Origin: Enterobacter kobei | GTDB taxonomy: Bacteria > Pseudomonadota > Gammaproteobacteria > Enterobacterales > Enterobacteriaceae | Direction of reading: 5' to 3' | Assembly: GCF_001729765.1 (NCBI RefSeq) | Contig: NZ_CP017181.1 | Span: forward strand, 3,038,001 to 3,102,000 | Length of the DNA: 64,000 bases | Notes under the pieces: generated by a model | What the model was told of the DNA's origin: nothing | Database searches by the model: none | The model's input: the letters and a program-made list of their open reading frames with translations, nothing else | Part shown: in pieces, positions 3,726 to 7,403 of the stretch | How the letters are laid out: every line of letters begins with the position of its first letter | Numbering within the stretch: the stretch's first letter is position 1 | Translations under genes and position numbers: made by a program

Positions 3726-4854
3726 GAATCAGTTCCTGGTAAATTTTTTCTAATTTCAAGGTTTGTTCTGAGAGATTAAATTTTTCGCGAATAAAGTTGC
3801 GCGCATTATCGCCCATTTCAAAAGATGTTTGTTCGTTGTTCAATAAGTAGTCTATTCTCTCAGCAAGCTGATTAGCATCTCGTTCCCTGACCAAAAATCC
3901 AGTGTGCTCGTCGATTATCGCTTCAGGAATGCCTCCATGACGGGTACCAATAACGGGTACACTTGTCACTGCCGCTTCGAGAAGTACCATCCCTAATCCT
4001 TCTGCATCCCCTGTCTTCGCTGTAATGCTTGGTAGAACCAACATACTTGCTTTACGCATCCACGTCATCACGTCACCGTGCGAAAGCGCACCAGTGAATG
4101 TCACATTCCGTTCGAGCCCTAGCGATGAGACCTGAGCTTTAAGCTCCCCCATCAAAGGACCATCACCGATGATAACGAGTTTTACGTCAGCATTTCGTTC
4201 TTTCACATGCTTAATGGCGTTGATTAATACGGCAGTGCCTTTCTTCTCAACCAAACGAGCTACATGCAGGATGATACCTTGATAGTCTTGTCTTTCACGC
4301 GGCTTATATTTGTCAATGTCGATACCAATGTAGTGCTGAACGATCTTATTTTCAGGGAAGCCATGGCGCAAAGCCTGTTGGGCAATAAAATCAGAAACAC
4401 AGATAAATTTATCACCCTGATTTTTAAGTTTCTTCTGATGAAGAAAATAGCTAATCCAGGCTGGAGACCGTGATGTTAGTAAATCTTTGTTACTCACAGT
4501 CACATCAAATCCATGCAGCGTCGTACACAGTGGGATTCCTTTCAGCTGCGCCAGTTTTAACGCATATAGTCCATCTATCGCAAAATGTGCATGAATAAGA
4601 TCAAGGGGTTGAGCTTTTAGCACTGTTTGATAGGGCAGCGCGGAGGTTGTGAATGCGTTCGCAATCTCAGAAATTTTACCCGCAAGGTCTCCGCGTTCAT
4701 TTAAAACGTGTGCGACAGCCCCCTCTGGTTTTTTGCCAATGACTCGTCTGCCGATATAGCACTTTTTGAAATTCTCGAGGGCTTCTGCCTGCTGTTGGAT
4801 AAAAACTTCAGAACCCTTGAATAGTTGATTTCTGAAAATACCGACCGTGTTCAT
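3718..4854 (-). CDS. GT4-family glycosyltransferase, WcaL-like
   Basis: A 378-residue GT4 enzyme similar in plan to colanic acid WcaL (406 residues, also in this window). It has IHAHFAIDGLYALKLAQ and TTLHGFDVT in the acceptor half. The donor half has ILHVARLVEKKG, LVIIGDGPLMGEL and the donor-binding motif GDAEGLGMVLLEAAVTSVPV. The ATG at 4854 overlaps the wzy stop in an ATGA-type junction. It presumably transfers a hexose to the O-type repeat unit. Because it lies downstream of the IS insertion in wzy, its expression may be reduced by polarity. Specificity cannot be read from the sequence. Confidence 0.85.
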   Translation of the reverse strand: MNTVGIFRNQLFKGSEVFIQQQAEALENFKKCYIGRRVIGKKPEGAVAHVLNERGDLAGKISEIANAFTTSALPYQTVLKAQPLDLIHAHFAIDGLYALKLAQLKGIPLCTTLHGFDVTVSNKDLLTSRSPAWISYFLHQKKLKNQGDKFICVSDFIAQQALRHGFPENKIVQHYIGIDIDKYKPRERQDYQGIILHVARLVEKKGTAVLINAIKHVKERNADVKLVIIGDGPLMGELKAQVSSLGLERNVTFTGALSHGDVMTWMRKASMLVLPSITAKTGDAEGLGMVLLEAAVTSVPVIGTRHGGIPEAIIDEHTGFLVRERDANQLAERIDYLLNNEQTSFEMGDNARNFIREKFNLSEQTLKLEKIYQELIHG

Positions 4855-5959
4855 TCCTGTACCCTAAAATTCCTGTTTATCGGTAAATTTCCTGCCAGAC
4901 AAAGCCCAAGCATTACTGCAAAAACAACCATCTGGTGTTGCTCACCAATCAAACCAAAGTTCTCACCAAAGCCATGTGCGAATAGCCATGAGATCACCAT
5001 TAAAAATGAAAATCCGATGTTTTTCTGCTTTTCATCGATGCTTCGTATCGCCCGAAGGGCAATTCGAATGCAGCACAGAATAAAGCCGAGCCCCAAAAGA
5101 GAGGCGATCAAGCCTGACTTTGACCAAAGATAGATAAGTGTATTATGCGGTGGAAGGAAATAATCAGTATGTTTACTGTAATCGGCTTCCCATCCACCAA
5201 ATCCTTGTCCCATCATTGGATTATCAGTAAACGCATTAAAAGCATAACTCCATATCTGGTAACGCGTTTCAGCGGTATCAGTTGATTCCTGTAAAAATCC
5301 GTTTTGTCCGATTACGCTAAAGATAACGCTGATAGCAATTAAGACGATGGCAAAAGAAGCGCCTGCTGTCACCACAATGACCTTAGTCGAGCGCTGCAAT
5401 GTCAGGTAGAAAACGAATGCCGGGATAAGAATGGCAAAAAGGATGCCAGCTTTGGAGCCAGTAAAGAAAACAGTGGCCCACAACAGGATAGCCATTAATA
5501 GCGTTATTTTCGCCTTTGAAACTTTATAGATACCCCATGCCATAAACGAAGAGATACCGACGTAACAGGCTGCCGCATTGGCATTGACGAACAACAGTCC
5601 CCCAGATTTTACCGGGTCGTAAAAGTTGTTTCTGGCACCATCTAACAAGCCCTGCAGCGTGTTCATCCCCATCGTAAACTTACTTACAGGTGAAAGAATA
5701 ACTGCTAATTCAAGGGACTCATTAAACCGGAAAATGATTACTGTTATAGCCTGCAAGCAAACAAAGAACAGCATCAAATTAATAATCTTATATAATGCAA
5801 TGCGATCTTTTAATGCCAGAACATAGATGGCGTTGGAAATAACGATAAACTCACACAAATAGGCAATATCACGGATGCCCATTGATTTCTCAACTGACCA
5901 TGCCAGGCTTAAGAGGCTAATACCAATCAACCCAAGCAGCATCACATTTGCCGGTTTGC

Positions 5960-5963
5960 CTAA
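5960..5963. repeat. Left copy of the CTAA target-site duplication
   Basis: The four bases just outside the left inverted repeat of the IS. The identical copy is at 7160-7163, just outside the right end. Exact duplication indicates simple transposition that has not been followed by rearrangement. Confidence 0.95.
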
Positions 5964-7159
5964 GGAAGGTGCGAACAAGTTCCTGATATGAGATCATCAT
6001 ATTCATCCGGAGCGCATCCCAGAGGGACATCATGAGCCATCAACTCACCTTCGCCGATAGTGAATTCAGCACTAAGCGCCGTCAGACCCGAAAAGAGATT
6101 TTCCTCTCCCGCATGGAGCAGATTCTGCCATGGCAGAATATGACCGCTGTCATCGAGCCGTTTTATCCCAAGGCGGGCAATGGCCGACGGCCCTATCCGC
6201 TGGAGACCATGCTGCGTATTCACTGCATGCAGCATTGGTACAACCTGAGCGACGGTGCCATGGAAGATGCCCTGTACGAAATCGCCTCCATGCGCCTGTT
6301 TGCCCGATTATCCCTGGATAGCGCCCTGCCGGATCGCACCACCATCATGAATTTCCGCCACCTGCTCGAGCAGCATCAACTGGCCCGTCAATTGTTCAAG
6401 ACCATCAATCGCTGGCTGGCCGAAGCAGGCGTCATGATGACCCAAGGCACTTTGGTGGATGCCACCATCATTGAGGCACCCAGCTCTACCAGGAACAAAG
6501 AGCAGCAACGCGATCCGGAGATGCATCAGACCAAGAAAGGCAATCAGTGGCACTTTGGCATGAAGGCCCACATTGGTGTCGATGCCAAGAGTGGCCTGAC
6601 CCACAGCCTGGTCACCACCGCGGCCAACGAGCATGACCTCAATCAGCTGGGTAATCTGCTTCATGGAGAGGAGCAATTTGTCTCAGCCGATGCCGGCTAC
6701 CAAGGAGCGCCACAGCGCGAGGAGCTGGCCGAGGTGGATGTGGACTGGCTGATCGCCGAGCGTCCCGGCAAGGTAAAAACCTTGAAGCAGCATCCGCGCA
6801 AGAACAAAACGGCCATCAACATCGAATACATGAAAGCCAGCATCCGTGCCAGGGTGGAGCACCCGTTTCGCATCATCAAGCGGCAGTTCGGCTTCGTGAA
6901 AGCCAGATACAAAGGGCTGCTGAAAAACGATAACCAACTGGCGATGTTATTCACCCTGGCCAACCTGTTTCGGGTGGACCAAATGATACGTCAGTGGGAG
7001 AGATCTCAGTAAAAACCGGAAATAACGCCAGAAATGGTGGAAAAAATAGCCTAAATAGGCTGATTCGATGTGTTTGCGGGAAAAAAATCGGCCCAGATCC
7101 GCGAAATTTTAATCAGCGAGTCAGCTTGGGAAGAAATGACCTGCTTATTCGCACCTTCC
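5964..7159 (+). mobile_element. IS5-family insertion sequence (IS5/ISKpn26-like), 1196 bp
   Basis: Terminal inverted repeats are visible: the left end GGAAGGTGCGAACAAG and the right end, read on the other strand, GGAAGGTGCGAATAAG, with 15 of 16 bases matching. Both ends are flanked by a direct repeat CTAA (5960-5963 and 7160-7163), which fits the YTAR target of the IS5 group. One transposase gene on the plus strand fills most of it, opposite to the interrupted gene. The length of 1196 bp is what I recall for ISKpn26, against 1195 bp for IS5 itself; a database comparison would settle the name. Confidence 0.95.
6032..7012 (+). CDS. IS5-family transposase (DDE)
   Basis: A 326-residue transposase nearly identical by memory to the IS5 protein of E. 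coli (MSHQLTFADSEF start). Likely DDE catalytic residues are Asp143 (TLVDATIIE), Asp220 (VSADAGYQG) and Glu276 (RVEHPFRIIKRQFGF, the Y/R-rich region of IS4/IS5-type enzymes). The ATG at 6032 is preceded by AGAGGG at a suitable distance. It performs cut-and-paste-type transposition of its own element. It is intact, so the element may still be mobile. Its base composition is richer in G+C than the surrounding polymerase gene. Confidence 0.95.
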   Translation: MSHQLTFADSEFSTKRRQTRKEIFLSRMEQILPWQNMTAVIEPFYPKAGNGRRPYPLETMLRIHCMQHWYNLSDGAMEDALYEIASMRLFARLSLDSALPDRTTIMNFRHLLEQHQLARQLFKTINRWLAEAGVMMTQGTLVDATIIEAPSSTRNKEQQRDPEMHQTKKGNQWHFGMKAHIGVDAKSGLTHSLVTTAANEHDLNQLGNLLHGEEQFVSADAGYQGAPQREELAEVDVDWLIAERPGKVKTLKQHPRKNKTAINIEYMKASIRARVEHPFRIIKRQFGFVKARYKGLLKNDNQLAMLFTLANLFRVDQMIRQWERSQ

Positions 7160-7163
7160 CTAA
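7160..7163. repeat. Right copy of the CTAA target-site duplication
   Basis: Matches the copy at 5960-5963. On the coding strand of wzy it reads TTAG, placing the insertion at codons 70-71 of the polymerase gene. Confidence 0.95.
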
Positions 7164-7403
7164 GAACCGATTGGCGTTAATGATAAATTCAGGAAGGAGT
7201 ATAGCGGGCAAAAGAAAAGCCAGCGGGACATCCGCCCCACTTAATTGCACCAGGTAGAGCTGCGGGATGCTGCATACAAGCACCAGCAACAATCGGGTTC
7301 GTAAGGACAGCGCGAGGAAAACAAAATATACGAGTAAACCTACGACTGCTGCTAATAAGACTTCAATCATTAATTTTATCCCACGAGATTTAGCAACCCA
7401 AAA

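What the first reader, a model, noticed from the sequence alone, without database searches (positions are those of the whole stretch)
4851..7370. Polysaccharide polymerase gene inactivated by a precise IS5-type insertion
Removal of the 1196-bp element and one CTAA copy restores an exact 1320-bp frame (439 codons plus stop) with a smooth protein junction. The insertion is thus recent and has left no other damage. An intact polymerase is needed to build long O-type chains, so this isolate should carry at most single repeat units from this locus, unless another polymerase is present. Loss of long surface chains often changes phage, serum and antibody sensitivity.
Basis: partly seen in the sequence, partly recalled or inferred. 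Interest (0 to 1): 0.75.

Follow-up and report, generated by a model that had tools for sequence, protein, structure and literature searches.

The report
O-antigen polymerase gene split by ISKpn26
In this Enterobacter genome a common mobile element has landed cleanly inside the gene that links sugar units into long surface chains, so the strain probably lacks long O-antigen; this is a real but well-known kind of event.

Summary
A complete 1196-bp ISKpn26 (IS5 family) lies at 5964-7159, flanked by CTAA on both sides, inside a minus-strand gene. The outer pieces total 1320 bp less one CTAA. Searched apart, they match residues 1-69 and 69 onward of uninterrupted 436-442-aa proteins in three other Enterobacter species, in the same cluster order. 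The cluster runs galF-manC-manB-wzy-GT-GT-flippase-GT-GT-wbaP-GT-rml genes-gnd-ugd, with wzzB beyond, and has an ops-like site: a Wzx/Wzy O-antigen locus. Only wzy looks broken. The genome holds 14 full copies of the element, differing at one base at most, which fits recent spread. Family searches found no spare O-antigen polymerase, but those searches also missed the colanic-acid polymerase WcaD, so this absence is weak. Expected result: semi-rough LPS (one unit), or rough LPS if the IS silences downstream genes; no phenotype was measured. IS knock-outs of O-antigen and capsule genes are in print, wzy among the targets and ISKpn26 among the elements, as is E. coli K-12 wbbL::IS5. Ordinary; interest low. 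Side lead: another ISKpn26 copy in the same genome splits a gtrB-like gene (O-antigen glucosylation).

The parts
7160..7370 (-). 5' piece of wzy (first 70 codons plus one base); read on into the IS it gives an 85-aa ORF (7113-7370)
5964..7159 (+). complete ISKpn26 (IS5 family), 1196 bp, inserted against the direction of wzy
6032..7012 (+). IS5-family transposase ORF, 326 aa
   Evidence: NF033581 364.8 bits, cut-off 140
5960..5963 (.). target-site duplication CTAA, left copy
7160..7163 (.). target-site duplication CTAA, right copy
4851..5963 (-). 3' piece of wzy (370 codons and stop) with the Wzy_C domain match
3718..4854 (-). GT4-type glycosyltransferase, uninterrupted (378 aa, same length in three relatives)
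2559..3725 (-). GT4-type glycosyltransferase, uninterrupted (388 aa, same length in three relatives)
1069..2562 (-). MurJ-like flippase, uninterrupted (497 aa; 495-497 in relatives)
7404..8792 (-). manB (phosphomannomutase CpsG type), uninterrupted
8789..10186 (-). manC (mannose-1-phosphate guanylyltransferase), uninterrupted
10234..10242 (-). ops core GGCGGTAGC in the galF-manC gap (JUMPStart-like site; motif recalled)
10448..11359 (-). galF, border gene of the O-antigen locus
   Evidence: TIGR01105 663.5 bits, cut-off 659.2

Best explanation
ISKpn26 transposed into a CTAA target in wzy, the polymerase gene of a Wzx/Wzy-type O-antigen cluster (shown by sequence). The break falls after codon 70. 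It separates the first hydrophobic segments from the rest of a polytopic membrane protein, so no complete polymerase can be made (inferred). With WbaP, glycosyltransferases, flippase, WzzB and a WaaL candidate uninterrupted, repeat units should still be built, flipped and ligated one at a time, giving semi-rough LPS. If the IS blocks transcription of the downstream genes, the outcome is rough LPS (both inferred). The insertion most likely arose during a recent spread of the IS within this lineage (inferred).
For: Element ends, repeats and 4-bp duplication. 14 full copies, 0-1 base apart, 9 of 14 with identical 4-bp flanks. Pieces match uninterrupted relatives on both sides of the same residue. 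Wzy_C in the C piece (58.6 bits, cut-off 31.7) and in 3 of 3 relatives tested. Same gene order in those three. WbaP subfamily TIGR03022 542.7 bits (cut-off 403), WzzB 548.7 bits (cut-off 267). galF, gnd and ugd over their cut-offs. A second PF04932 gene lies near rfaC. ops site and RfaH (279.3 bits, cut-off 124). No second O-antigen polymerase found.
Against: No phenotype data. The C-terminal ORF is long, keeps the Wzy_C match and could in principle be translated from internal starts (no convincing ribosome site by eye), so residual activity is not strictly excluded. Polymerases are very divergent: the PF04932, PF14296, PF14897 and TIGR04370 searches also failed to list WcaD, so a second polymerase could be missed. 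The polymerase model TIGR04370 scores below its cut-off here. The stricter WbaP equivalog NF011751 is also below its cut-off (750.3 against 907). The WaaL candidate matched Pfam but no NCBIfam model.
Confidence: 0.9

Rival explanations
1. Polar knock-out of the whole cluster: the IS stops transcription (or antisense transposase transcription interferes), so the glycosyltransferases, flippase and wbaP downstream are also silent and the LPS is fully rough.
For: The IS lies upstream of at least seven same-strand cluster genes. A terminator-like hairpin with a T tail lies inside the IS on the operon strand, 7061-7048; 8 terminator-like sites were found in 4700-7500 against 3.0 (sd 1.7) in shuffles.
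Against: The hairpin has only 5 pairs and consensus scans are weak evidence. An ops site and an RfaH gene predict antitermination through the operon (RfaH function recalled).
Confidence: 0.25
2. Selected loss: O-antigen-dependent phage (or growth without need for O-antigen) favoured the insertion, and the same IS also hit an O-antigen glucosylation (gtr) locus.
For: A second ISKpn26 copy splits a gtrB-like gene next to an uninterrupted gtrA; IS1 and a third ISKpn26 lie where two relatives keep a third gtr-type gene. The closest gtrA relatives in other species (79% and 83%) are in two of the three species that share this wzy. A wzy mutation giving phage resistance is published for P. aeruginosa (PMC5992289, abstract read).
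Against: In the third species sharing this wzy the best gtrA match is only 56%, and 22 of 60 genus genomes have some gtrA match. Two further gtr loci in the own genome look uninterrupted. The 14 copies lie in many unrelated places. Order and cause of events are unknown, and the link was made after the fact.
Confidence: 0.2
3. The insertion is a mixed-population or laboratory-passage event that does not represent the lineage.
For: Only one genome of the species is held; IS movement during culture is reported for Klebsiella (PMC7590720, passages).
Against: Assembly of two contigs, 100% complete by the tool's figure, with an exact target duplication; neither excludes passage.
Confidence: 0.2

Closest known systems
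E. coli K-12 wbbL::IS5 (passages of PMC12691688 read)
   Same: IS5-group element interrupting one gene of an O-antigen cluster, abolishing smooth LPS
   Different: There the gene is wbbL (a glycosyltransferase, recalled) and LPS is rough; here it is the polymerase, so single-unit LPS is expected
K. pneumoniae wzy::IS1X2, with wzc::ISKpn26 in other isolates of the same study (passages of PMC12077207 read); wzy::ISKpn25, wzy::IS1-like, wzy::ISKox3 and wzc::ISKpn26 in non-mucoid variants (passages of PMC7590720 read)
   Same: IS in a Wzy polymerase gene; the same element ISKpn26 in a polysaccharide operon
   Different: Capsule loci in Klebsiella, arising in mouse gut or on plates; here an Enterobacter O-antigen locus, cause unknown
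ISKpn26 insertions in K. pneumoniae O-loci gmlB, kfoC, wbbM, wbbO, wzm and wzt (passages of PMC7556023 read) and in capsule gene wcaJ (passages of PMC9769677 read)
   Same: Same element (1196 bp in PMC9769677) inactivating surface polysaccharide genes
   Different: Other genes; the O-loci there carry wzm/wzt (an ABC-transporter pathway, recalled)
P. aeruginosa wzy point mutation giving phage PaP1 resistance (PMC5992289, abstract and outline read)
   Same: Loss of the O-antigen polymerase and of long chains
   Different: Point mutation, phage selection shown by experiment

Membership tests
ISKpn26 / IS5 family element | 1196 bp, near-identical to named ISKpn26 copies | tested here: met
   100% over 1196 bp to NZ_AP023191.1, annotated ISKpn26 family transposase; length 1196 bp also given in PMC9769677
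ISKpn26 / IS5 family element | Terminal inverted repeats and 4-bp target duplication of YTAR type | tested here: met
   12-bp perfect ends, CTAA/CTAA; 9 of 14 copies with identical 4-bp flanks, 5 of 14 not; the YTAR label is recalled
ISKpn26 / IS5 family element | DDE transposase of IS5 type | tested here: met
   PF01609 122.7 bits; NF033581 364.8 bits over cut-off 140
Wzy O-antigen polymerase | Wzy_C domain in a polytopic membrane protein | tested here: met
   hydrophobicity of an uninterrupted relative. The WaaL-type gene has the same domain, so this alone does not separate the two
Wzy O-antigen polymerase | Encoded in a galF-gnd O-antigen cluster with flippase, initiating transferase and glycosyltransferases | tested here: met
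   galF-gnd as the E. cloacae O-antigen site in PMC7198725 (passages)
Wzy O-antigen polymerase | NCBIfam repeat-unit polymerase model TIGR04370 | tested here: inconclusive
   22.4 bits, below the cut-off of 40; the uninterrupted E. soli relative is also below it (27.1 bits)
Wzy O-antigen polymerase | Polymerises repeat units in vivo | not testable with these tools
   needs LPS analysis
Wzy-defective (semi-rough) strain | Single repeat unit on lipid A-core | not testable with these tools
   inferred; definition of semi-rough LPS from PMC12004945 (passages)

The most novel reading that the evidence does not exclude
One element, ISKpn26, has dismantled O-antigen function at two separate places in one genome (polymerase and a gtr glucosylation locus), as a footprint of selection against long or modified O-antigen, probably by phage.
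Probability: 0.15. Interest if true: 0.35.

Novelty: new member of a known kind. Interest (0 to 1): 0.15.

Why it matters
Sequence-based O-typing of this strain would call a serotype that its cells probably do not display as long chains, and phage or antibody tests on it should not be taken as typical of the species. It adds an Enterobacter wzy to the targets of ISKpn26; mechanism and outcome are familiar.

Tried and rejected
Second polymerase rescuing the loss: searched with PF04932, PF14296, PF14897, TIGR04370 and PF06899 in the own genome; besides the broken gene only a WaaL-type gene and WzyE were listed. WcaD in the window is the colanic-acid polymerase (865.2 bits, cut-off 589.65); since the first four family searches did not list it, they are not sensitive to all polymerases.

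Capsule rather than O-antigen: no wza/wzb/wzc-type export genes were seen in this cluster; wza/wzc-type ORFs lie in the separate colanic-acid locus at 30-34 kb (names by recall). WbaP and WzzB support O-antigen.

Dating the insertion by decay of the pieces: no use. Against E. soli, dS was over 1 in 4 of 9 comparisons (manC, manB, wzy N piece, GT1), 0.997 in 1 of 9 (galF), and not computable (saturated) in 4 of 9, the wzy C piece among them.

IS-borne outward promoter driving the C-terminal piece: the scan found one promoter-like site in 4700-7500, at 5893-5865 inside the wzy C piece and none in the IS, against 3.8 expected in shuffles.

Print: eight paper searches listed no paper whose title or abstract start names an ISKpn26 insertion in an Enterobacter wzy. 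Long result lists were cut (15 of 185, 10 of 47, 12 of 71); nine papers were opened, eight by passages and one by abstract and outline. Only open-licence PMC papers are held, so this is weak evidence of absence.

my first comparison of IS copies used wrong orientations for minus-strand copies; its copy table was dropped and repeated. The ops positions at the end are unaffected; it found three minus-strand GGCGGTAGC sites (10234, 17869, 34233), of which only the first is used here.

Full report
Observation. The window lies in an Enterobacter chromosome (own genome 4,927,478 bases in 2 contigs; the genus is inferred because genus-mate G041 has the matching contig at the same length, 185,584 bases, as the named E. 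soli record). The finding is exact: an element of 1196 bp at 5964-7159 with 12-bp perfect inverted ends, flanked by CTAA at 5960-5963 and 7160-7163. The remaining gene lengths, less one CTAA, come to 1320 bp.

The element. It is ISKpn26: 100% identical over its length to a plasmid copy annotated so, with at least 5000 plasmid records matching, a limit of the search. The own genome has 18 matches: 14 full copies and 4 partial or diverged ones. The 14 full copies differ by 0 or 1 base (position 529: the wzy copy and two others carry G, 11 of 14 carry A); 9 of 14 have identical 4-bp flanks and 5 of 14 do not. This is a recently spread family; the mismatched flanks suggest recombination between copies (inference; deletion by recombination between ISKpn26 copies, with no direct repeats left, is described in PMC13224724, passages).

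The gene. The C piece carries a Wzy_C match. The N piece (70 aa) and C piece (370 aa), searched apart, match residues 1-69 and 69 onward of uninterrupted 436-442-aa proteins at 70-84% and 74-83% identity. In the genus, 6 of 61 genomes have a match at E <= 0.001: the own genome, three strong ones (74-83%) with uninterrupted frames, and two weak ones at 25%. In a family-wide draw, 3 of 295 genomes matched at E <= 1e-40: the own one and two of another genus with 439-aa open frames. Uninterrupted copies were thus found in five other genomes.

The cluster. Order on the minus strand from galF: manC, manB, wzy, two GT4 transferases, a MurJ-like flippase, two further transferases, WbaP, another transferase, rmlB, rmlA, rmlD, rmlC, gnd and ugd, with wzzB beyond (WbaP by TIGR03022, while the stricter NF011751 is below its cut-off). 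The order from galF through the flippase to the next transferase is the same in three relatives, with equal or near-equal lengths (for example 378, 388, and 495-497 aa), so wzy is the only broken gene seen in that stretch; beyond it only one relative was read as far as wbaP. An ops core lies in the galF-manC gap, RfaH is present over its cut-off, and a WaaL-type gene sits near rfaC (it matches Pfam but no NCBIfam model). In E. cloacae the O-antigen cluster lies between galF and gnd, and wbaP marks types proposed to start with galactose (PMC7198725, passages).

Consequence. Without polymerase, single units should still be ligated: semi-rough LPS, as defined in PMC12004945 (passages). The IS may also reduce downstream expression: a weak terminator-like hairpin lies in the IS on the operon strand, while ops and RfaH argue for read-through. 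I put semi-rough above rough LPS, but neither was measured. Family searches gave no other O-antigen polymerase. WzyE and WcaD belong to enterobacterial common antigen and colanic acid. Since WcaD was not listed by the PF04932, PF14296, PF14897 or TIGR04370 searches, a divergent spare polymerase cannot be ruled out.

Side lead. Another ISKpn26 copy splits a gtrB-like gene (L026; the N piece matches family-2 glycosyltransferases, the C piece has no Pfam match) beside an uninterrupted gtrA, and IS1 plus a further ISKpn26 occupy the place where two relatives keep a third gtr-type ORF. The closest gtrA relatives in other species (79-83%) are in two of the three species that share this wzy; in the third the best is 56%. 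Two other gtr loci in the own genome look uninterrupted, so selection against O-antigen is open, not shown.

Known or new. IS5 in wbbL of E. coli K-12, IS1X2 in Klebsiella wzy and ISKpn26 in wzc, ISKpn25, IS1-like and ISKox3 in Klebsiella wzy and ISKpn26 in wzc, ISKpn26 in Klebsiella O-locus genes and in wcaJ are in print. I saw no report of ISKpn26 in an Enterobacter wzy in the searches named, which cover open-licence papers only and whose longer lists were cut. This is a new instance of a known kind of event.

The weakness of the second-polymerase search was added.

Noticed in passing
L026 4118-8662 (own genome C1:1144118-1148662): gtrA uninterrupted, gtrB-like gene split by ISKpn26 (TTAG/TTAG), then IS1 and another ISKpn26 where relatives L049 and L050 have a third gtr-type ORF of 493 aa; a tRNA-Arg (tct) lies nearby at 3676-3752.
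   Followed up: partly
L047 2023-4935 and L048 2029-4832: Two further gtr loci in the own genome look uninterrupted; their third genes match DUF6056 and Glucos_trans_II (GtrII).
   Followed up: partly
L002, L006, L007, L008, L027: 5 of 14 full ISKpn26 copies have non-matching 4-bp flanks, suggesting recombination between copies.
   Followed up: no
window 1069-2562: The cluster's flippase scores as MurJ (PF03023, 117.6 bits over cut-off 27.4) but below the NCBIfam MurJ cut-off (142.6 against 235.55), so it is a MurJ-like flippase in the place of Wzx.
   Followed up: no
L009, L012: Other ISKpn26 copies lie at the edge of a CHAT-domain ORF and of an EAL-like ORF (the latter below the Pfam cut-off).
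   Followed up: no
window 7061-7048 (minus strand): Terminator-like hairpin with a T tail inside ISKpn26 facing transcription that enters from the host operon; it could act as a shield.
   Followed up: no
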